Origin: a virus
Length of the DNA stretch: 39,069 nucleotides
Virus record (IMG/VR): IMGVR_UViG_3300028837_002970
Coordinates: 1 to 39,069 of that record
Strand: one strand, 5' to 3'
Part shown: positions 15,591-30,989 of the stretch, in pieces
How positions within the stretch are numbered: position 1 is the stretch's first letter
How the letters are laid out: each line of letters starts with the position of its first letter
Translations under genes and position numbers: made by a program
Notes under the pieces: model-generated
The model's database searches: none
The model's input: the letters and a program-made list of their open reading frames with translations, nothing else
What the model was told of the DNA's origin: nothing

Positions 15591-15996
15591 ATGGGTGTTT
15601 ACGAAGAATTAGAGAAAATCATATTCGGTTTTACGATGGAAGCGGCTCAAGGGCAATCTCGATCAGACGATTATCGAGGGTGTCAAAGAAGGGAAACCGA
15701 TCAGGGAAATCACGAAAGATGTCCAGGCGATATTCGACGATATGAAGGGATACGAGGCTGAGCGGATTGCCAGGACCGAGGTAGCGAGAGGAGTAAATAA
15801 CGGCGCCCTGGTGGGATATAAGGAAATGGGGATCGAGATTGTCGAGTTCTATTACAATGGCGGTGACTGTTCTCTATGTTCGCCACATCATGGTGAGACG
15901 ATGACGATTGACGAGGCGATGAATTTAATACCGCTGCATCCGAACTGTTACTGCTTCTGGCTCTCGAGGCCGGATTTAACGAAAAAAGACTTATGA
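15591..15996 (+). pseudogene. MuF-like minor head protein, internally deleted and frameshifted
   Basis: ATG 15591 (GGAGGTGG upstream) opens MGVYEELEKIIFGFTMEAAQ and then leaves frame near the GGG at 15651..15653. One base fewer there would continue as GNLDQTIIEGVKEGKPIREI, then YEAERIARTEVARGVNNGAL, DCSLCSPHHGET and LHPNCYCFWL. The last part is the conserved C-terminus of the MuF/SPP1 gp7 family (PF04233). Family members have roughly 200 more residues in front of the RIARTE motif. Both ends are kept, but the middle and the frame are lost. MuF proteins help capsid assembly or DNA exit. Confidence 0.7.
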
Positions 15997-16408: not shown

Positions 16409-16470
16409 TCCGCCTTCGCAAATAAATTTGCTTCGGCGGACAAGGAAGGGATAAGGCAGAAGGCACAAAG
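16409..16470 (+). repeat. Hairpin repeat G followed by repeat B
   Basis: 16409..16440 is TCCGCCTTCGCAAA / TTTGCTTCGGCGGA, a near-perfect hairpin that may act as a terminator, though no T-run follows. A related copy is at 34929..34965. Family B bases (AAGGCAGAAGGCACAAAGGG) follow. It marks the left edge of the AT-rich cargo island. Confidence 0.65.
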
Positions 16471-16478
16471 GGAAAATT

Positions 16479-16694
16479 ATGGCTGTTTTAATGGATGATA
16501 AATTGAAAGAGAAACTCGAACGTGTGAAGAAACGTGAGTGGTGGCCTGTTGCGCTCCTTGCGGAAGTGCTGGGGAAGCCGAGAATGTATGTTTATCGGCG
16601 GATTAATAGTGGGTATTTTGATGAAATTCAAACTATCGGACCTAAACGGGTAACGACGGAATCAGTTTTGGAATATTTTGGTGAAAACAGGTGA
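16479..16694 (+). CDS. Excisionase-like HTH protein
   Basis: 71 residues. VALLAEVLGKPRMYVYRRIN is a MerR/excisionase-type (HTH_17) helix-turn-helix, followed by a short wing (IQTIGPKRVTTESVLEYF). Small proteins of this kind bend DNA or regulate transcription. It is the first gene of the cargo island. No integrase is present, so a classical excisionase role is unlikely. Confidence 0.6.
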   Translation: MAVLMDDKLKEKLERVKKREWWPVALLAEVLGKPRMYVYRRINSGYFDEIQTIGPKRVTTESVLEYFGENR

Positions 16695-17058
16695 AAAAAA
16701 GTGTCAGAAACGGCTCAAAAATCGCTTAAAATTTTAAACAAGTGTAAATAACATTCTTAAAAAAAGATAATGCGTCTATGGGCGTTTGTATATATATGCG
16801 AGACAACGACTTACGAAATATATAAGAAATATTTGGAAAATATTAACTATAAACTATTACACTATTTGTAACTATATGCGAGACAAGGAGATACGGCTGA
16901 AGAAAAAGAGAAAAAATAAAAAAATAGCAGTGAAAAACATACAATGTAGAGTATATTATTTACAAAGTATAAAGAAAAAATACTAAAAAATGTGTTGCAT
17001 TATGCAACATATCATATAAAAAAATAACTTTTTTAAAAATATTTTTCACTTTTTTTAT
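16695..17058. other. AT-rich non-coding stretch with short repeats
   Basis: No convincing gene. A 66-residue frame (16786..16986) is lysine-rich low complexity. The motif TATATGCGAGACAA occurs at 16793 and 16873, 80 bases apart. A perfect 17-bp palindrome TGTTGCATTATGCAACA lies at 16993..17009. These may be binding sites for the island's HTH proteins. Confidence 0.5.
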
Positions 17059-17106
17059 TGTCCCTGTAAAAGCCTATGAATAAAGGCTTTGCGGGGACAT
17101 TTTTTA
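17059..17106 (+). terminator. Intrinsic terminator in the cargo island
   Basis: Stem TGTCCC/GGGACA (17059..17064 with 17094..17099) with an inner stem AAAGCC/GGCTTT, then a run of seven T from 17100. It isolates the following promoter and genes from upstream transcription. Confidence 0.75.
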
Positions 17107-17136
17107 AAGAATAATTATACAATGTAATAATAATAC

Positions 17137-17165
17137 TTGACATAATAGAGTATATTTATTATTTT
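17137..17165 (+). promoter_or_regulatory. Promoter of the cargo HTH operon
   Basis: TTGACA (17137..17142), then TATTTT (17160..17165) at 17 bp spacing, upstream of a gene with AAGGAG at its start. The terminator just before suggests an independently expressed cargo (moron-type) unit. Confidence 0.5.
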
Positions 17166-17193
17166 ACTATCAAGAAAAATAAGGAGACCCCCG

Positions 17194-17499
17194 ATGAAAA
17201 AAGAAATTACAATAACGAGCCCGAAGTCAGCAGCGAGAATTTCAGAAGATTTTGTGACGAGATATAATAATGGATTAAAGAGTGTCTCTGTTAAGGCTGT
17301 GATTGTTAAAGAAACTGAAAAGGCTGTCATGCTTTCCCGATTAATTGAATCAAAAGGAAAGGAATATACCTGCTGGATTCCTAAAGCCGGATTTGATTTT
17401 GGCATGAGCGGAGAAAAGGATTGGGATGAGAGCAATATATTTCCGAAAGATTTCCTTTATAGCGATTCATATAAGACATGGTTTTTGACGGCAAAATAA
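17194..17499 (+). CDS. Cargo hypothetical protein
   Basis: 101 residues, ATG 17194 behind AAGGAG. The segment VSVKAVIVKETEKAVMLSRL and, further on, YTCWIPKAGFDF suggests a small beta-barrel of a type seen in plasmid and phage accessory proteins (..AVL...WIPKS). The rest is not recognised. It is followed after 23 bases by the zinc-finger/HTH gene with its own GGAGG, so the two are probably co-transcribed. A toxin-antitoxin pair is possible but unsupported beyond the arrangement. Confidence 0.65.
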   Translation: MKKEITITSPKSAARISEDFVTRYNNGLKSVSVKAVIVKETEKAVMLSRLIESKGKEYTCWIPKAGFDFGMSGEKDWDESNIFPKDFLYSDSYKTWFLTAK

Positions 17500-17522
17500 A
17501 CAATTAAAAAGGAGGATTTCAA

Positions 17523-17978
17523 ATGAAAAAAATAGCAGAAAAATCGATTGTGGTTGATGACGAGGGAACACCTCTATTTGAAATACAGCTCGCATGTGAA
17601 CTCTGCGGCCGACCTATTAATGCAAATCCTGATTATGTTATCAATGAAAGGTATCATTGTATATATTGTTATAATGCAATCAAGCGAAATGATAAACGAT
17701 ATATCAATTTTCATCTTAAAAAAAATATTAAAGATGAAATAAAAAGTACCTTAGCGAGAGAAAGTTATCGTAATGAAAGAATGGAATTTCGAGAGATTGA
17801 AGAAATAAGGAACAGGCTCGGACTGACGACACGGGCTTTTGCAGAGCTTATCGGGATTAAAGTGAACACCTATTATTCGTATCGTAATGCACGGAATCGA
17901 TCGGGAGCAGTTGAAAAAATTTTGCGATTGCTGAAAAAAGAGCCCGAAGAGATGTTACAAAAAATGAGAAAGGTATAA
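17523..17978 (+). CDS. Zinc-finger plus HTH regulator (MqsA/HigA-like layout)
   Basis: 151 residues. The N-terminal part has CELC (residues 22-25) and, 25 residues on, CIYC, a likely zinc site. The C-terminal 65 residues are a helix-turn-helix (LGLTTRAFAELIGIKVNTYY, then RNRSGAVEKILRLL) of the NadS/HigA/MqsA kind. The zinc-then-HTH order recalls MqsA antitoxins. The C-terminal half is nearly duplicated as a separate gene at 18252. It probably regulates its own operon through the palindromes around it. Confidence 0.65.
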   Translation: MKKIAEKSIVVDDEGTPLFEIQLACELCGRPINANPDYVINERYHCIYCYNAIKRNDKRYINFHLKKNIKDEIKSTLARESYRNERMEFREIEEIRNRLGLTTRAFAELIGIKVNTYYSYRNARNRSGAVEKILRLLKKEPEEMLQKMRKV

Positions 17979-17995
17979 AAAAGTGTAACACTTTT
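17979..17995. promoter_or_regulatory. 17-bp palindrome, copy 1
   Basis: AAAAGTGTAACACTTTT, a perfect palindrome directly at the stop of the zinc/HTH gene. The identical sequence follows the paralogous HTH gene at 18450. Possibly an operator or weak terminator carried along in the gene duplication. Confidence 0.6.
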
Positions 17996-18059
17996 CAAGG
18001 TGGTGGCAAAGTTATTTAACATTACCGTTGTAAAAAATGTAATTTGGTAAAGTTACTTG

Positions 18060-18180
18060 ATGGGAAAATTATCTAAAAGCACGGATAATGGACTTAACCA
18101 ACAGAGCCGTGCTTCGATATCGACAAACAGCGAATATATCCTTCGCTTCTCTGACAATTTAAAGACTTGGAAACAAGTCA
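18060..18180 (+). ncRNA. Candidate non-coding RNA with three hairpins
   Basis: In a 273-base gap without a gene lie three consecutive hairpins: AAGCACGG/CCGTGCTT (18077..18084 with 18107..18114), AGCGAA/TTCGCT (18129..18147), and GACTTG-GAAA-CAAGTC (18164..18179), the last capped by a GNRA tetraloop. No T-run follows. Between two paralogous regulator genes this could be a small RNA or a structured leader of the second gene. The rest of the gap, 17996..18059 and 18181..18251, shows nothing else. Confidence 0.45.
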
Positions 18181-18251
18181 ATAGTGATGTCATAAGAAAA
18201 ATAAACAAAAAATAATATTATGTCAATAGAATATTTTGAAAGGATTAGATT

Positions 18252-18449
18252 ATGAAATTTGAAGAAATTGAAGCTATCAGGAACAGACTCGGGTTGACGA
18301 CAAGGGCTTTTGCGGATCTGATCGGGATTAAGTTAAGCACATATTATTCATATAAAAATTCGAGAAAGCCATCTGGATCTTGTTTAATTTTGTTAAAGCT
18401 CTTTAAAAATGAACCTTTTGAAGTGTTACAAAAAATGAAGAAGGTATAA
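18252..18449 (+). CDS. Stand-alone HTH paralogue
   Basis: 65 residues, closely similar over its whole length to the C-terminal 65 residues of the gene at 17523 (RNRLGLTTRAFADLIGIKLS, ending LQKMKKV). It lacks the zinc finger. Start ATG 18252 follows GAAAGGATTAG. Likely arose by local duplication including the palindrome downstream. It may compete for the same operators. Confidence 0.7.
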   Translation: MKFEEIEAIRNRLGLTTRAFADLIGIKLSTYYSYKNSRKPSGSCLILLKLFKNEPFEVLQKMKKV

Positions 18450-18466
18450 AAAAGTGTAACACTTTT
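18450..18466. promoter_or_regulatory. 17-bp palindrome, copy 2
   Basis: AAAAGTGTAACACTTTT, identical to 17979..17995 and in the same place relative to its HTH gene. Confidence 0.6.
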
Positions 18467-18500
18467 CACAGTATTAACATAAAAATTATATTATATATAA

Positions 18501-18531
18501 AACCGTGGGCAGAGATGCATGCGGCTTTTTT
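18501..18531 (+). terminator. Terminator after HTH paralogue
   Basis: A stem CCGTG/TGCGG around GCA-GAGA-TGC, followed by CTTTTTTG. It overlaps the upstream extension of the next reading frame, so that gene more likely starts at ATG 18547. Confidence 0.5.
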
Positions 18532-18546
18532 GTTTTAGAGGCGATT

Positions 18547-18777
18547 ATGGGAAAGCAAATCATTGAAAGAATAAAATATAGAATAAAAAAATTTAAAGAA
18601 ACAGAAGGAGATGGACTTGAAGATTGGCTTTATCTCATTCATCATCTTCATGAACAAAAAGAAATACAGCATTGTTTAAAAGGATTGGTAGAAGATCAAG
18701 ATGTCTACTGGAGTAATGAGGAAGCAGAAGCAGATGGCGAAACGGTACCCTGTGCAAATAGGCAATTGGAAAGTTGA
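18547..18777 (+). CDS. Small helical cargo protein
   Basis: 76 residues from ATG 18547. Helical N-terminus (IIERIKYRIKKFKETEGDGL) and an acidic C-terminus. It overlaps the asparagine-synthase-like gene by 77 bases if that gene starts at 18701, or by 47 if at 18731. This suggests a coupled pair. Not recognised. Confidence 0.5.
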   Translation: MGKQIIERIKYRIKKFKETEGDGLEDWLYLIHHLHEQKEIQHCLKGLVEDQDVYWSNEEAEADGETVPCANRQLES

Positions 18778-19480
18778 TGAAAATATTTATAGTATTGAGG
18801 AATTGCTTGAAATCATAAGCCATGAATTACAGCAAGCAATTTTCAATATCAAAAGACCTGGAATACTTTTATCGGGAGGTATTGATAGTTCAATAATTGC
18901 AATTTTGGGGAATAAATATTACCCGGGTATCCCATGTTTTACTATTGGTAAATCATATGAACATCCTGATGTAATTTCAGCTATGAAATTATCAAAAGAA
19001 AAACAGCTAAATCATTATGTATATCTACCAAAACAAGAAGAAATATCTGAATCAATAAAATGTTTTGACAGACTGAATCGTGGGGATAATGCAGTAATGC
19101 TTATTTTGAAATATGCCTCAAAATTTATAACAGATATTTTAGCCGGTGATGGCATCGATGAGCAAATGGGGGGTTATTGGTGGCATGTTTATACAAGCTC
19201 AAGGTTTTCTTCACAGGAAGAAACTTTTAAATATTTTTTTGGAAAACTCGAAGAAGAGCATTTGACTCCAATGTTTAATTCTGCTGAAAAATTAGGAATT
19301 AATGTTGACTGGATTTACCTACATAAACCGATTGTGGATTATATATCGAGAATACCTATTCGTGATCGTGTAAAAGATGGAATTGGGAAATCATTATTGC
19401 GTGAAATTGCAAGAATTGTGGGCATGCCAGAATGGATAATTAACCGTCCGAAAAGAGGTTTTGTAGATGCTCTCAGTTGA
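18701..19480 (+). CDS. Asparagine-synthase-fold ATP-pyrophosphatase, no glutaminase domain
   Basis: Up to 259 residues; ATG 18731 (MAKRYPVQIG...) is an equally good start. The PP-loop is LLSGGIDSSIIA, the second motif AGDGIDEQMGGYWW, and the C-terminal RIVGMPEWIINRPKRGF matches asparagine synthetase (PF00733). There it adenylates a carboxylate for amide formation. The N-terminal glutaminase is missing, and the protein stops five residues after RPKRGF, where AsnB runs on. Stand-alone relatives serve in peptide cyclisation (lasso peptides, beta-lactams) and possibly base modification. Which applies here cannot be told. No precursor peptide or modification partner was found nearby. Confidence 0.75.
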   Translation: MSTGVMRKQKQMAKRYPVQIGNWKVDENIYSIEELLEIISHELQQAIFNIKRPGILLSGGIDSSIIAILGNKYYPGIPCFTIGKSYEHPDVISAMKLSKEKQLNHYVYLPKQEEISESIKCFDRLNRGDNAVMLILKYASKFITDILAGDGIDEQMGGYWWHVYTSSRFSSQEETFKYFFGKLEEEHLTPMFNSAEKLGINVDWIYLHKPIVDYISRIPIRDRVKDGIGKSLLREIARIVGMPEWIINRPKRGFVDALS

Positions 19481-19523
19481 TTGGATTAAAAATAGAATTG
19501 AATATCGTAAGAAAAAAAATACA

Positions 19524-19619
19524 ATGAATACCGGGAAACAGATATTTCGAGTGCCGATTACCAGGATAGATATCGAGCGGCACATGGTATACGGTTATGC
19601 TTCGACGGGCAGAGTATGA
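19524..19619 (+). pseudogene. Prohead protease N-terminal remnant
   Basis: 31 residues: MNTGKQIFRVPITRIDIERH then MVYGYASTGRV and a stop. This is the typical first strand pair of HK97/XkdF-type prohead proteases (..I.kvd.e.r.vyGyastg.vD.qgD). The following protease core with its catalytic residues is gone. The next frame (19597) begins inside this remnant and carries what is normally the C-terminal domain. I infer an internal, out-of-frame deletion at about 19610. Confidence 0.55.
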
Positions 19620-21401: not shown

Positions 21402-22013
21402 ATGGGATTTTATCCTAAGAATCCTGGTCTCGGCCAGGTAGTACAGAGCGATGTTGCAAATGACAATCCCGACCGGAGTTTCGTTGCACATTTAGAGTGG
21501 ACAGCAGGGGAAGCACTTGCAGCCCTCACCACCGGTGTTCATGCGGCGGTTACGTGTAACGGTTCAACGCAGGTAATCACCACGTTAATCACCAATCCCG
21601 GAGTGCCGCGCAGTATCACGGCAACAGCAGGCGGTACGGGAACCGATATCGGGGCCATTCAGGTAACTATCACAGGTACCAATATTCTCGACGAGGTGAT
21701 CAGCGAGGTGCTGCCGGTATTTACCGTGGATACGCCTGGAACGGTCGAGGGTAACAAGGCTTTCAAGACGGTCACAAGTATCTCCATTCCGGCTCATGAC
21801 GGTACCGCTGCGACCACAGCCATCGGCTGGGGTGATAAATTAGGGCTGCCTTACGCAGAAGAAGAAATTCCCTGCATCGATGCATTTCTCAACAGTGTAC
21901 ACGAAGGGACAGCTGCGGCAGTCACCGCAAGCGCCACAGCAATCGAGAGCAACACCATCGATCTAAATTCGGCACTGAACGCGACGAAGGTGGATGCTTA
22001 TCTGGTTGTGTAG
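21402..22013 (+). CDS. Virion decoration-like protein, copy 1
   Basis: 203 residues, ATG 21402 after GAGGAGG. Beta-rich repeats rich in Thr and Gly (PRSITATAGGTGTDIGAIQV, then FTVDTPGTVEGNKAFKTVTS and IGWGDKLGLPY). This composition is typical of capsid decoration or other structural proteins of tailed phages. It lies directly after the capsid gene. A paralogue at 25504 shares most of its length. Confidence 0.65.
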   Translation: MGFYPKNPGLGQVVQSDVANDNPDRSFVAHLEWTAGEALAALTTGVHAAVTCNGSTQVITTLITNPGVPRSITATAGGTGTDIGAIQVTITGTNILDEVISEVLPVFTVDTPGTVEGNKAFKTVTSISIPAHDGTAATTAIGWGDKLGLPYAEEEIPCIDAFLNSVHEGTAAAVTASATAIESNTIDLNSALNATKVDAYLVV

Positions 22014-25503: not shown

Positions 25504-26115
25504 ATGTCAGTAACATATCCTTTTAATCCAAGCGGTCAGGAGATAAAATCCGATGTAGTTAGTGAGGATCTCGACCGTAGTTTTATTACACATTTTGAGG
25601 TTTCGGCGGAAGATGCAGTTGCAGCCAGTACCACCGGTGTTCATGCGGCAGTCACGGATAACGGTTCAGAGCAGGAGATTACAACCGAAATTACCGATCC
25701 GGCGGTACCGAGAAGTATCACGGCTACGGCAGGAGGTACCGGTGGTGATATCAAGGCGATTCAGGTGACTATCGAAGGCACCAATTTCTTAGATGCTGCG
25801 ATAAGTGAAACGCTGCCGGCATTCACAGTGGATACGCCAGGAACGGTCGAGGGCAGCAAAGCTTTCAAGACGGTCACCAAAATCACTATTCCTGCACACG
25901 ACGATACCGGCGCTACCACGTCCATCGGCTGGGGTGATAAGTTAGGGCTGCCATATAAACGGGAGATTATATCCTGTATCGATGCATTCCTGGATAAAGC
26001 AAAGGAAGGGACTGCACCGGCACTCACAGTTCATGTTGACAATATCGAGAGCAATACGATCGATTTGAATTCCGCATTAGACGGGACGAAGGTGGATGCA
26101 TTTCTGGTGATATGA
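25504..26115 (+). CDS. Virion decoration-like protein, copy 2
   Basis: 203 residues, the same length as the gene at 21402 and clearly its paralogue (shared PRSITATAGGTG, AFTVDTPGTVEGSKAFKTVT, IGWGDKLGLPY, ESNTIDLNSAL). It sits after the tail tube rather than after the capsid. It may decorate the tail, or the duplication may be recent and redundant. ATG 25504 follows AAGGAG. Confidence 0.65.
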   Translation: MSVTYPFNPSGQEIKSDVVSEDLDRSFITHFEVSAEDAVAASTTGVHAAVTDNGSEQEITTEITDPAVPRSITATAGGTGGDIKAIQVTIEGTNFLDAAISETLPAFTVDTPGTVEGSKAFKTVTKITIPAHDDTGATTSIGWGDKLGLPYKREIISCIDAFLDKAKEGTAPALTVHVDNIESNTIDLNSALDGTKVDAFLVI

Positions 26116-27182: not shown

Positions 27183-30100
27183 ATGGCTAAAGATTATACA
27201 GTGGCGGTTCATATCAATGCGAGGGACAACGCTTCGGGAGTGGTGGAGAAGTTCTCGAAGGGTTTTTCCAAATGGATGAACCGTGCTGTCATAGCGGCTA
27301 TTGCAGCGGCGGCTGCATTCAGTACCATGTCCATGAAATGGGGCATGGATTATGAGGCACAGATGTCGGCTGTGAAGGCTGTTTCTCAGGCTACTGCAGG
27401 AGAGATGGCGGCACTCTCAGAGAAGGCGAAACAGCTTGGCAGGGATTCCGCTTACAGCGCCACCGAGTCTGCTCAGGGGATGGAAGAACTGTTGAAGGCG
27501 GGGCTTTCTGTCGCCGATACCTTAAATTCAGTAGGCTCCGCGCTAGATCTGGCAGCAGCGGGCGGTATCGAGGTAGCAGAAGCTGCAAAGATAGCCGCAC
27601 AGGCACTGAATATATTTGACCTTCCAGCCACAGCCACAACACATGTAGCAGATGTATTAGCGCAGGCAGCATCTTCTACGGCAACCGGTGTTATTGAGTT
27701 AGGAGAGGCAATGAAATATGCAGGACCTGTCGCATCGGGACTAGGAGTATCTCTCGAGGATACCGTTAGTATGTTAGCTTTGATGAGTAAAGCCGGTATA
27801 GAATCAACTATGGCAGGCACCACATTCCGCAATGTCATGATGAGCATAGTAGATCCAACCGATGAAGCAAATAAAGTCTTAAAAGATTTGGGCATAAACA
27901 CAGTAAATGCCCAGGGTAAATTTTTAAAAATGGATGAAATACTCGAACAGTTCACGCCTGAAATTCTCGATACAGCACAGGGCATTGCTTTTATGAATAA
28001 AGTATTCGGTGCACGCGGCGCGCCCGGAATGATACAGCTTATTAAGGAAGGGTCTGTAAACTTTAAAGAATTTAGAGACGAAATGAAAGCATCGGACGGT
28101 GTCGCAAAAACCATGGCGGAAGTACGGCTGGATAATCTGAAAGGTGCATTCACGATGCTGAAAGCAAGCATAGAGGGAGTCGGGATAGCGTTAGTTTTAG
28201 GCGGTGAAAACAGCCTTGCCGGCGGGATGAAGAAATTTATTGTAGAAGGGATTATACCGGTAATAAACAATACGGCAAAGTGGATCGAGCAGGTCGGCGG
28301 GCTGCCGGGTGTGTTGAAGATGGCGTGGGAGATATTAGTCGCGTTCGGGACGGAAGTAAAAGTTGCACTTGTTAATCTTTTTACCGACTGGGAAACATTC
28401 AAAGCATTTGCAATTATGTTCGGACAAACACTGGCAATAGCTATTGGATCGCTATCATTGTTTGCAACCGAAGTGATGATAGCAATTGTCAATGTGGCAG
28501 CAGTTGCCTGGCTGCCTTTAGTGGCACCACTCGCGGTTGTTATCAGCCAGTTGAAGGAACTCTTTGTAATCTTCCTAAACTGGTTAGGGCCGAAGTTTAT
28601 AAATGCTATCAATACTCTAATAAGCCCATTCAGATGGCTTATGGATAAAATCGGTATAGAGATAGGAGAATTTGACTGGACACCATTAACAGTCGAACCA
28701 GCACTTACCATGGAGGAAGTATTCCCTGCATCAATAAAGGTGGTTGCTGATGCAATCGGGAACGGGAAAGATAGGATTATAGCCAGTGCATACGATTTAA
28801 AGAATAATTTTAAATTGGTAGGTGAAGGTTTGAGGGAAGCACTTCTTATTGCCAATCCTGATCTTTTGAATTTTCCGGAGAAACTCGATGAAATAGTGAA
28901 GTCTTATGAAAAAGTCGGGACTGCGGCTGTGGAGAGTGCGGAGGAAGCGGCGGCGGTAGTGGGACCCGGGTCACCATTGGATGAGAATACAAAAAAAGCA
29001 GGGGAAAATATCACAACGAGTTTCATAAAGGGTTGGCAGAATTATATAAAATCGATTCCGACGTTCTTAGAGCAGGTCGAGGCAAATGTATATCACATGG
29101 GGCTTGCGATAGAGCGGAGTCTGGCGGACAGTTTTGAAATGTTTTTCCGGACGGGAACATTTTCATTCAAGGTTTTTGCGGAAGAGGTAAAGGAGAGTTT
29201 CTGGAAGATGTTAGCGGATATGGCTTCGAAGACACTTATAGAGGAAATAGTCGGAGGTGCAGTGGGTTATATGACGGATCTTTTCACCGGCGATGAGGAA
29301 GGCGATAAGGGATTTGCGAAGATAAAAAAGGATGGATTAAAACTCTGGGAAGATCTGGGAAAAGCTGTTGAAACTGCTGCTTCAATAGCAGGAAAAGTAT
29401 GGGAAGCCGGTGCATATATTGCCATAAAAGCCTGGGAAGGATTGAAATGGATCGGAAGTTTCAGTGTTGATGCAGCCGCATATCTTGCCGGCGCTGCCTG
29501 GGCCGGTGCAGGTGCTATTGCCAAATTAGCCTGGGCAGGATTGAAATGGATCGGGAGTTTTAGTGTCAGTGCTGCTGCGACTGCTGCAGGGCTTGCGTGG
29601 GCAGGCGGAGCTTCCATAGCAAAATTAGCCTGGGCAGGATTGAAATGGATCGGGAGTTTCAGTGTCGATGCTGCTGCGACTGCGGCAGGGCTTGCCTGGG
29701 CCGGCGGAGCTGCGATTGCCTGTGCTGCGTGGGAGCTTTTAAAATGGATCGGGAGTTTCAGTGTCAGTGCTGCTGCGACTGCGGCAGGATTTGCGTGGGC
29801 GGTTGGGGCTGCTGTTGCAAAGCTTGCCTGGGCAGGGCTCAAGTGGTTAGCAAGTTTTTCTGTATCAGCGGCAGCTGAAGCAGCCGGGTTAGCATGGTCA
29901 ATAGCTGCGTGGGTAGCGAATATGGCTTGGCAAGCACTCAAGTGGTTAGCAAGTTTTTCTGTATCAGCGGCAGCTGAAGCAGCGAATATGGCTTGGCAAG
30001 CACTCAAGTGGTTAGCAAGTTTTTCTGTATCAGCGGCAGCTGAAGCAGCCGGGTTAGCATGGTCAATAGCTGCGTGGGTAGCGAATATAGCTTGGCAAGC

Positions 30101-30767
30101 ACTCAAGTGGTTAGCAAGTTTTTCTGTATCAGCGGCAGCTACGGCAGCAGGGACAGCTTGGGCATCAGCAGCGACAACGGCAACAACTGCTTGGTCAACC
30201 TTTGCAGCTATTGTAGCAGGAATTGGGACAGCATTATTATATATAACTGAGGCTGGCGTAGCGATTGGGAGTGCCTTTGCTACAGGTGCGGTTATGGCAA
30301 TAGCAGCATTAGCACCATTACTTGCAGCACTTTGGGCGGCATATGAACTGGCTGTAGCGTTAGGTATAATTAAAGAAAAAGAAGGAAAATATTACGGTAC
30401 CGACCCGCATATAGATTACGGGCCTAAACCGTTTCCTATCGATCAACCAAATCCATTTGCAAAAGCAGCAGGATATCAATACGGCGGACTGATACCGGGG
30501 ATAACGGGACAGGGACGGTTTATATACGCACATGCGGGAGAAGGAGTGCTGAATCAGCGGGCAATGAGTTTTATCGGGGAGGGCGGACTGAACAGGATGA
30601 ATGAAGGCAGTACACCGATGAAACATATAACGATTATTATACAAGCACTTGATGGCAGTGATGTCGAACGTGTTTTTGAAGATAAGTTATTGCCATTGAT
30701 ACAGGAAAAAACAGAAGCAGGTGTCGAGGTTATACATGAACGCGGGATCAAGCATGAGACGGCGTGA
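27183..30767 (+). CDS. Tape measure protein
   Basis: 1194 residues. The N-terminus has a TP901-type core (TTFRNVMMSIVDPTDEANKV, IAFMNKVFGARGAPGMIQLI). Long helical segments and hydrophobic stretches (about 30-50, 390-460) follow. Residues about 750-1005 are eight tandem 33-residue repeats of the form LKWIGSFSVSAAATAAG. A glycine-rich tail region ends the protein (YQYGGLIPGITGQGRFIYAH). It sets tail length and is ejected with DNA. The frame is intact. AAGGTAAGAGGAA supplies the ribosome site. Confidence 0.9.
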   Translation: MAKDYTVAVHINARDNASGVVEKFSKGFSKWMNRAVIAAIAAAAAFSTMSMKWGMDYEAQMSAVKAVSQATAGEMAALSEKAKQLGRDSAYSATESAQGMEELLKAGLSVADTLNSVGSALDLAAAGGIEVAEAAKIAAQALNIFDLPATATTHVADVLAQAASSTATGVIELGEAMKYAGPVASGLGVSLEDTVSMLALMSKAGIESTMAGTTFRNVMMSIVDPTDEANKVLKDLGINTVNAQGKFLKMDEILEQFTPEILDTAQGIAFMNKVFGARGAPGMIQLIKEGSVNFKEFRDEMKASDGVAKTMAEVRLDNLKGAFTMLKASIEGVGIALVLGGENSLAGGMKKFIVEGIIPVINNTAKWIEQVGGLPGVLKMAWEILVAFGTEVKVALVNLFTDWETFKAFAIMFGQTLAIAIGSLSLFATEVMIAIVNVAAVAWLPLVAPLAVVISQLKELFVIFLNWLGPKFINAINTLISPFRWLMDKIGIEIGEFDWTPLTVEPALTMEEVFPASIKVVADAIGNGKDRIIASAYDLKNNFKLVGEGLREALLIANPDLLNFPEKLDEIVKSYEKVGTAAVESAEEAAAVVGPGSPLDENTKKAGENITTSFIKGWQNYIKSIPTFLEQVEANVYHMGLAIERSLADSFEMFFRTGTFSFKVFAEEVKESFWKMLADMASKTLIEEIVGGAVGYMTDLFTGDEEGDKGFAKIKKDGLKLWEDLGKAVETAASIAGKVWEAGAYIAIKAWEGLKWIGSFSVDAAAYLAGAAWAGAGAIAKLAWAGLKWIGSFSVSAAATAAGLAWAGGASIAKLAWAGLKWIGSFSVDAAATAAGLAWAGGAAIACAAWELLKWIGSFSVSAAATAAGFAWAVGAAVAKLAWAGLKWLASFSVSAAAEAAGLAWSIAAWVANMAWQALKWLASFSVSAAAEAANMAWQALKWLASFSVSAAAEAAGLAWSIAAWVANIAWQALKWLASFSVSAAATAAGTAWASAATTATTAWSTFAAIVAGIGTALLYITEAGVAIGSAFATGAVMAIAALAPLLAALWAAYELAVALGIIKEKEGKYYGTDPHIDYGPKPFPIDQPNPFAKAAGYQYGGLIPGITGQGRFIYAHAGEGVLNQRAMSFIGEGGLNRMNEGSTPMKHITIIIQALDGSDVERVFEDKLLPLIQEKTEAGVEVIHERGIKHETA
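29440..30200 (+). repeat. Eight tandem 99-bp repeats in tape measure gene
   Basis: Units begin near 29442, 29541, 29640, 29739, 29838, 29937, 30003 and 30102. The sixth is 33 bp short. Units 5 and 7 differ by about one base over 100, so the last duplication is recent. Units 1-4 (LKWIGSFSV) and 5-8 (LKWLASFSV) form two subtypes. All changes are in multiples of three and keep the frame. Confidence 0.85.
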
Positions 30768-30783
30768 ATTGTGAATGATGAAT

Positions 30784-30989
30784 GGATTCCCGATTAAAGA
30801 TTTCGGGAATGACAGTGGGAGCTCTCGGGAATGACAGTGGGAGCTCTCGGGAATGACAGTGGGAGCTCTCGGGAATGACAGTGGGAGCTCTCGGGAATGA
30901 CAGTGGGAGCTCTCGGGAATGACAGAAAAGGCACAGAGGCAGAAGGCAGAAGGGACATGGATTCCCGATTGATGCACTCGGGAATGACA
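30784..30989 (+). repeat. Repeat A with 22-bp tandem array, repeat B, repeat A
   Basis: After GGATTCCCGATTAAAGATTT, a 22-bp unit (GGGAATGACAGTGGGAGC plus TCTC) occurs five times exactly at 30805..30914. The unit is the A-family end with a GAGCTC palindrome. A sixth partial copy, family B bases (30927..30956) and another full A unit (30959..30989) follow. No gene fits the 255-base spacer. Confidence 0.85.

What the first reader, a model, noticed from the sequence alone, without database searches (positions are those of the whole stretch)
16409..19523. AT-rich cargo island with regulators, candidate RNA and an asparagine-synthase-fold enzyme
Between MuF and protease lies a 3.1 kb block with its own terminators and promoter, two paralogous HTH genes, a zinc/HTH protein and a PP-loop amide-forming enzyme without glutaminase. 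None of it is needed for a phage particle. It may be a defence, competition or modification module.
Basis: partly seen in the sequence, partly recalled or inferred. Interest (0 to 1): 0.7.

Follow-up and report, generated by a model that had tools for sequence, protein, structure and literature searches.

The report
Phage head-gene amide-enzyme pair
Next to the genes that build their heads, a scattered set of uncultured bacterial viruses carries a tightly linked pair: a small histidine- and cysteine-rich protein, often fused to the portal or minor head protein, and a stripped-down relative of asparagine synthetase that probably makes an amide bond on or through it.

Summary
The AT-rich block is real, but it is two unrelated things. 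The first half (16479-18450) holds an excisionase-like HTH gene, a small orphan protein, an MqsA-like zinc/HTH protein and its partial duplicate. Its orphan and zinc/HTH genes were found only in one near-identical contig (L002). The second half is a conserved two-gene cassette: a small His/Cys-rich protein (window 18547-18777; 106 aa in L002, but 90 bp is missing in the window) and an AsnB-type synthetase domain without glutaminase (18701-19480). I found about 30 non-redundant virus or prophage loci with both genes side by side, mostly in head modules. The small "HHC" domain is free-standing, or fused to portal, MuF, protease-like or ChaB-like proteins. Searches with the HHC domain alone returned the enzyme nearby in all but one locus (L119, where the HHC gene is broken). 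ATP-site residues are intact and selection is purifying, while aspartate-pocket and glutaminase-interface residues of AsnB are replaced. No match was found in 50,697 GenBank phage records. My best reading is a head-protein modification pair: the enzyme forms an amide on, or guided by, the HHC domain. That chemistry is inferred. There is no evidence for a defence function, and the HTH genes are not part of the cassette.

The parts
18547..18777 (+). Small His/Cys-rich 'HHC' partner gene, truncated here: 76 codons. The intact 106-aa version is L002:1551-1871. The 30 codons missing at junction 18659/18660 carry the invariant HHC...DHLGN core.
   Evidence: invariant residues
18701..19480 (+). AsnB-type synthetase (PP-loop) domain protein without glutaminase, 259 aa from the first ATG (true start possibly 18734). 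It overlaps the HHC gene. PP-loop LLSGGIDSS, AGDGIDEQMGGYWWH, K219 (of the 248-aa form), RPKRGFVDAL.
   Evidence: Pfam E 7e-26; model pLDDT 87, best PDB match E. coli AsnB TM 0.81; family alignment
19467..19619 (+). Start of the downstream prohead-protease/scaffold gene, whose ATG overlaps the last codons of the enzyme gene. Intact in L002:2561-3808 (415 aa); 194 bp missing in the window. 'Protease' is my reading from position and sequence; no PHROG matched.
17523..17978 (+). MqsA-like zinc (CxxC...CxxC) plus Xre HTH protein. Not part of the conserved cassette.
   Evidence: PF15731 27.7 bits (cutoff 30); TIGR03830 37 bits (cutoff 61.8)
18252..18449 (+). Partial duplicate of the HTH half of 17523-17978. 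Not part of the cassette.
17194..17499 (+). Orphan 101-aa protein upstream of the MqsA-like gene. Not part of the cassette.
   Evidence: no family match; no homologue in 50,697 phage records
17059..17105 (+). Strong intrinsic-terminator-like hairpin upstream of the HTH genes
   Evidence: z -5.9

Best explanation
The last 0.9 kb of the block is a conserved two-gene module of uncultured tailed phages. Gene 1 encodes a small domain ('HHC') with an invariant His-His / Glu / His-Cys / Asp-His / Asn core that looks like a metal or active site. Gene 2 encodes an AsnB-family synthetase domain that activates a carboxylate with ATP and joins it to an amine. SHOWN: the two genes are almost always adjacent and closely spaced or overlapping, they sit mostly in the portal-to-capsid region of unrelated head modules, the HHC domain is often a C-terminal part of portal, MuF or other proteins, both genes are under purifying selection where testable, and the enzyme keeps the ATP site but has lost the AsnB aspartate-pocket and glutaminase-interface residues. 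INFERRED: the HHC domain is the enzyme's protein substrate or docking platform in the assembling head, and the enzyme forms an amide there (amidation by free ammonia, or an isopeptide/lactam with a neighbouring amine), giving a post-translationally modified head protein. Which residue is modified, and whether the product matters for assembly or for the infected host, is not known.
For: Scans with the HHC protein alone returned loci that all carry the enzyme nearby, except L119, where the HHC frame is broken. The reverse scan with the enzyme found the HHC domain beside nearly every glutaminase-less member and beside only one full-length AsnB, L049, which keeps an intact Cys-2 glutaminase and therefore points to ammonia chemistry. 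Three HHC subfamilies are homologous (hhalign 98.9-99.9%), with H32, H33, E43, H47, C48, D52, H53 and N56 invariant in 26 of 26. Fusions: Portal_Mu+MuF, SPP1 portal, lambda-family portal, another portal. Neighbour tallies: upstream portal, minor head and terminase; downstream head maturation protease and major head protein. In most loci the enzyme start lies within about 15 nt of the HHC stop, and in subfamily 2 the last codons AAG GAG TGG read as a Shine-Dalgarno. dN/dS 0.03-0.31. Tree: 27 HHC-linked enzymes plus four others form one clade (100/94), L049 and L053 outside it. Residues: PP-loop, DGxDE and Lys-466 equivalent kept; Arg-403 becomes Pro in 30 of 32; Glu-414 and Arg-416 lost; new invariant His in GGYxxH, 32 of 32 (residue roles from PMC6748925).
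Against: No experiment shows modification. The HHC model is weak (pLDDT 72) and matches no known fold, so 'substrate' is not distinguishable from 'partner enzyme' or 'effector'. Many HHC proteins are free-standing. In the window the HHC gene lacks its core. L049 keeps a canonical AsnB next to its HHC gene, which could mean that plain asparagine-type chemistry suffices. Part of the C-terminal conservation is explained by overlapping translation signals.
Confidence: 0.45

Rival explanations
1. Injected-effector reading: the HHC domain is a cargo effector (metal- or cysteine-dependent enzyme) packaged with portal/MuF and delivered into the next host, as described for MuF toxins and polyvalent proteins; the AsnB-like protein matures it or protects the producing cell.
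For: C-terminal fusions to MuF and portal match the architecture in PMC5576092 and PMC5512222; invariant catalytic-looking residues; the gene immediately downstream is in the place of an immunity gene.
Against: The HHC domain is highly conserved instead of polymorphic, the downstream gene is an ATP-using synthetase of 230-260 aa where immunity ORFs are often under 150 aa (PMC5576092), and many HHC proteins are free-standing.
Confidence: 0.25
2. Metabolic or host-surface gene: an ammonia-dependent AsnB-like enzyme making asparagine or amidating a small molecule or cell-wall precursor during infection; HHC is an accessory subunit.
For: AsnB fold and chemistry; AsnB-family enzymes act on other substrates (general knowledge); L049 has a complete AsnB.
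Against: Aspartate-pocket Arg-403 and Asp-400 are replaced; it does not explain the repeated HHC fusion to head proteins or the near-strict pairing; full-length viral AsnBs found in the same scan lack HHC, apart from L049.
Confidence: 0.13
3. One reading: a single cargo, defence or competition island made of regulators, RNA and enzyme.
For: Shared low GC; an MqsA-like regulator often belongs to toxin-antitoxin pairs.
Against: The regulators do not accompany the cassette in any other fetched locus; no RNA family; no solid defence-library match for the enzyme.
Confidence: 0.05
4. Passive hitch-hiking: the pair is a selfish insert carried in head modules without function for the particle.
For: It moves between head types; in L034 and L036 the enzymes are close (dS 0.22) but the HHC domains are further apart (dS 0.94) and fused to different proteins; L007 carries remnants of a replaced enzyme.
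Against: No mobility gene seen; near-strict pairing, close coupling and purifying selection.
Confidence: 0.07

Closest known systems
Asparagine synthetase B (AsnB/ASNS, TIGR01536, PF00733)
   Same: Synthetase-domain fold, SGGxDSS PP-loop, acidic cluster (Glu-364 to Asp, Asp-367, Glu-368), Lys-466 equivalent, C-terminal RxKxxF motif
   Different: No N-terminal glutaminase; stops at RxKxGFxDA; Arg-403, Asp-400, Glu-414 and Arg-416 equivalents lost; new invariant GGYxxH; paired with the HHC domain
Lasso-peptide cyclases and beta-lactam/carbapenam synthetases (AsnB-fold ligases with dedicated substrates)
   Same: AsnB-fold enzyme working with a dedicated partner or substrate; CarA is among the closest solved structures
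   Different: Those keep an N-terminal glutaminase-like domain (general knowledge); no lasso precursor, RRE or peptidase genes recognised here; only one of 12 members hits the lasso cyclase model, weakly
MuF polymorphic toxins and polyvalent head-packaged proteins
   Same: Extra C-terminal domain on MuF or portal in the packaging module, with a dedicated gene directly downstream
   Different: Conserved domain instead of a polymorphic toxin; downstream gene is an ATP-dependent synthetase; toxicity and immunity unknown
MqsRA toxin-antitoxin (for genes 17194-17978 only)
   Same: About 100-aa gene followed by a zinc plus Xre-HTH protein
   Different: 17523 scores below the MqsA cut-offs and 17194 has no MqsR match

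Membership tests
AsnB / asparagine synthase (glutamine-hydrolysing) | N-terminal Ntn glutaminase with Cys-2 | tested here: not met
   259-aa protein covers only the synthetase domain; TIGR01536 72 bits against cutoff 267
AsnB / asparagine synthase (glutamine-hydrolysing) | PP-loop and ATP/PPi-binding lysine | tested here: met
   PP-loop (one G to A exception) and Lys-466 equivalent conserved in all 32 cassette-type enzymes
AsnB / asparagine synthase (glutamine-hydrolysing) | Synthetase-site Arg-403/Asp-400 and glutaminase-interface Glu-414/Arg-416 | tested here: not met
   Arg-403 position is Pro in 30 of 32; Glu-414/Arg-416 positions variable; Asp-400 is His in the profile consensus
AsnB / asparagine synthase (glutamine-hydrolysing) | Makes asparagine | not testable with these tools
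   needs an enzyme assay
Lasso peptide cyclase (NF033535) | Model match above cut-off plus precursor and B1/B2 genes nearby | tested here: not met
   1 of 12 members, E 1.7e-6; the neighbours classified are head genes
MuF polymorphic toxin | MuF N-terminus with extra C-terminal domain | tested here: met
   only in L033, L036 and L037; the HHC gene in the window is free-standing
MuF polymorphic toxin | Toxic C-terminal domain and small immunity ORF | tested here: inconclusive
   downstream ORF is a 230-260 aa synthetase; toxicity not testable
MqsA antitoxin (gene 17523) | Score above PF15731 / TIGR03830 cut-off and MqsR partner | tested here: not met
   27.7 of 30 bits and 37 of 61.8 bits; 17194 has no MqsR match
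Known anti-phage defence system | PADLOC model match | tested here: not met
   12 enzymes scanned: one weak QueC hit, E 0.005

The most novel reading that the evidence does not exclude
A new class of virion post-translational modification: a phage-encoded AsnB-type ligase that installs an amide or isopeptide bond on a dedicated His/Cys (metal-site) domain appended to portal, MuF or other head proteins.
Probability: 0.3. Interest if true: 0.85.

Novelty: new variant of a known kind. Interest (0 to 1): 0.63.

Why it matters
It links an ATP-dependent amide-forming enzyme to the portal/minor-head region of many unrelated phage head types, together with a conserved domain that has no significant match in Pfam, PHROGs, NCBIfam or the PDB and was not found in the GenBank phage records searched. 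If the enzyme modifies the head domain, it is a new kind of capsid maturation chemistry; if the domain is an injected effector, it is a new MuF/portal cargo with an unusual partner. Either way the pair is small and easy to test by co-expression and mass spectrometry.

Tried and rejected
One island with regulators: rejected, the HTH genes and the 101-aa protein occur only in L002. MqsRA system: below cut-offs, no toxin match. RNA gene: no Rfam match, no excess folding apart from the terminator. Decayed AsnB: rejected by conserved ATP-site residues and purifying selection. HHC as a replacement glutaminase: disfavoured, L049 has an HHC gene and an intact glutaminase. A fourth domain type next to the enzyme (downstream in L041, L047, L050; motif FHNYEH..HC..NPYRIxH) looks similar, but homology is not shown (hhalign 2.8%). 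HHC fold search: no significant match. GenBank phages, plasmids and 395 genomes of the phylum of L013's host (only L013's own genome matched): nothing further. Literature: no paper linking AsnB-like genes to phage heads found in the held library. A shared N-terminal leader on the downstream gene ('MxYLEKVISGI.KRK') was seen in some loci but not in all, and was not pursued.
Full report
WHAT IS THERE. The window is a 39,069-bp IMG/VR virus record. Between about 16.5 and 19.5 kb the GC content falls to 0.32-0.34, against 0.41-0.50 in the flanks. The block holds an excisionase-like HTH gene (16479-16694), a hairpin terminator (17059-17105; z -5.9), an orphan 101-aa gene (17194-17499), an MqsA-like zinc/HTH gene (17523-17978), a partial duplicate of its HTH half (18252-18449; about 220 bp duplicated 471 bp apart), a small gene starting at 18547, and an Asn_synthase-domain gene (18701-19480; PF00733 E 7e-26). 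No RNA family was found, and promoter/terminator counts are near shuffled expectation in such AT-rich DNA.

THE WINDOW COPY IS INCOMPLETE. Contig L002 (7.6 kb) is identical to the window over about 7.1 kb apart from one SNP and three stretches present only in L002: 90, 194 and 203 bp. There they give a 106-aa small gene, a 415-aa protease/scaffold gene and a 314-aa capsid gene. The junctions have no microhomology, so these may be closed assembly gaps. The small gene was therefore studied from L002.

TWO UNRELATED HALVES. tblastn of the zinc/HTH, 16479 and 101-aa genes against all fetched loci finds matches only in L002 (and its copy L021); 16479 lies outside the part covered by L002. GenBank phages have no match to 17194 or 17523. 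The small gene and the enzyme gene recur together. Scans with the enzyme and, independently, with the small protein found about 30 non-redundant loci in IMG/VR and one Bacteroidota MAG (L013). All loci found through the small protein have the enzyme nearby, except L119, where the small gene is frameshifted and no enzyme follows; L043 has a methyltransferase-like gene between the two. Among the enzymes, nearly every glutaminase-less one has the small domain directly upstream; full-length viral AsnBs do not, apart from L049. Three glutaminase-less enzymes (L041, L047, L050) have instead a downstream domain with a similar His/Cys spacing whose homology is not shown; L074, a long-branch outlier, has neither.

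THE SMALL 'HHC' DOMAIN. Its pattern is DWxYLIHH - E..HHC - DHLxNxY - H - H - GL - WSDEEA. H32, H33, E43, H47, C48, D52, H53 and N56 are invariant in 26 of 26. Three subfamilies are homologous. It has no significant match to a Pfam, PHROG or NCBIfam family, a PDB sequence or a PDB fold (model pLDDT 72). It is free-standing (window, L013, L019, L031, L035 and others), follows a ChaB-like segment (L003, L010, L011, L012), or is the C-terminus of a Mu-type portal+MuF protein (L033, L036, L037), an SPP1 portal (L028), a lambda-family portal (L051), another portal (L042), or of phosphoribosyltransferase-, nucleotidyltransferase- or protease-like proteins (L039, L034, L030) (the last two names and 'ChaB-like' are my reading of the sequence). 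Upstream neighbours tally as portal, minor head and terminase; downstream neighbours as head maturation protease and major head protein.

THE ENZYME. The model (pLDDT 87) matches the synthetase domain of E. coli AsnB (TM 0.81). Compared with 37 other viral AsnB-type sequences, the 32 cassette-type enzymes keep the PP-loop, the acidic DGxDE cluster and the ATP-site lysine. The position of ASNS Arg-403 is Pro in 30 of 32, the positions of Glu-414 and Arg-416 are unconserved, and a new His in GGYxxH is invariant (human numbering from the alignment). In human ASNS, Glu-414 and Arg-416 lie at the glutaminase interface and Asp-400/Arg-403 in the synthetase site (PMC6748925). So the ATP chemistry is kept, while the classical aspartate pocket and glutaminase interface are not. 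The 27 linked enzymes fall, with four others, in one supported clade; L049 (with glutaminase) and L053 fall outside it.

LINKAGE LOOKS FUNCTIONAL. In most loci the enzyme start lies within about 15 nt of the HHC stop (overlaps of up to 50-77 nt in the window's group). In subfamily 2 the last HHC codons, AAG GAG TGG, look like the enzyme's Shine-Dalgarno. dN/dS is 0.19-0.31 for enzymes and 0.03-0.22 for HHC domains where it could be computed. Partners are re-shuffled: L034 and L036 carry close enzymes on different HHC fusions, and L007 keeps both ends of a replaced enzyme around a more distant one.

HOW IT PROBABLY WORKS. Established chemistry of the AsnB fold is ATP-dependent acyl-adenylate formation followed by attack of an amine. 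Given the near-strict pairing, the close coupling and the physical fusion of the partner to head proteins, I infer that the HHC domain is the substrate or docking site and that the amide is formed in the assembling head. The steps 'acts on HHC', 'amine is ammonia or lysine' and 'effect on the particle' are inferred. The main rival is that HHC is an injected effector, as for MuF toxins (PMC5576092, PMC5512222), with the synthetase as maturation or immunity factor.

NOVELTY. Nothing similar was found in 50,697 GenBank phage records or 72,556 plasmids, in 395 genomes of the phylum of L013's host apart from that genome itself, or in the literature searched. The enzyme is a new subfamily of a known superfamily, the HHC domain is undescribed in the libraries searched, and the combination appears new.

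Noticed in passing
window 2417, 14678, 16000, 21347, 23211, 23810, 30785, 34763, 34975 and others: Many intergenic copies of a 30-40 nt hairpin repeat (GATTCCCGAT...TCGGGAATGACA), some in 22-bp tandem arrays (30785-30933), plus other intergenic repeat families; unusual for a phage genome and like bacterial REP-type repeats.
   Followed up: partly
window 21431-22006 and 25533-26108: Two head/tail-region genes share 72-83% nucleotide identity 4.1 kb apart: an internal duplication.
   Followed up: no
window 29374-30236: Tandem repeats of 33/99 bp inside the 1194-aa ORF at 27183-30767.
   Followed up: no
window 15591-15996: The MuF-like C-terminal piece (15742-15996) lacks an in-frame N-terminal part; possibly another closed gap like the three seen against L002.
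   Followed up: partly
L051:1833-4985: The lambda-type portal ORF that carries the HHC tail also contains a LAGLIDADG domain (probable intein).
   Followed up: no
L043/L110, between HHC gene and enzyme: A DNA-methyltransferase-like ORF sits between the two cassette genes.
   Followed up: no
L005, L016, L042, L108 head modules: Sugar-nucleotide epimerase, radical-SAM, glycosyltransferase-like or aminotransferase genes lie close to the cassette; virion or surface glycan modification may accompany it.
   Followed up: no
L041:5635, L047:2950, L050:3595: A different small His/Cys domain (FHNYEH..HC..NPYRIxH) directly follows the enzyme in loci without the HHC domain; found in no other context.
   Followed up: partly
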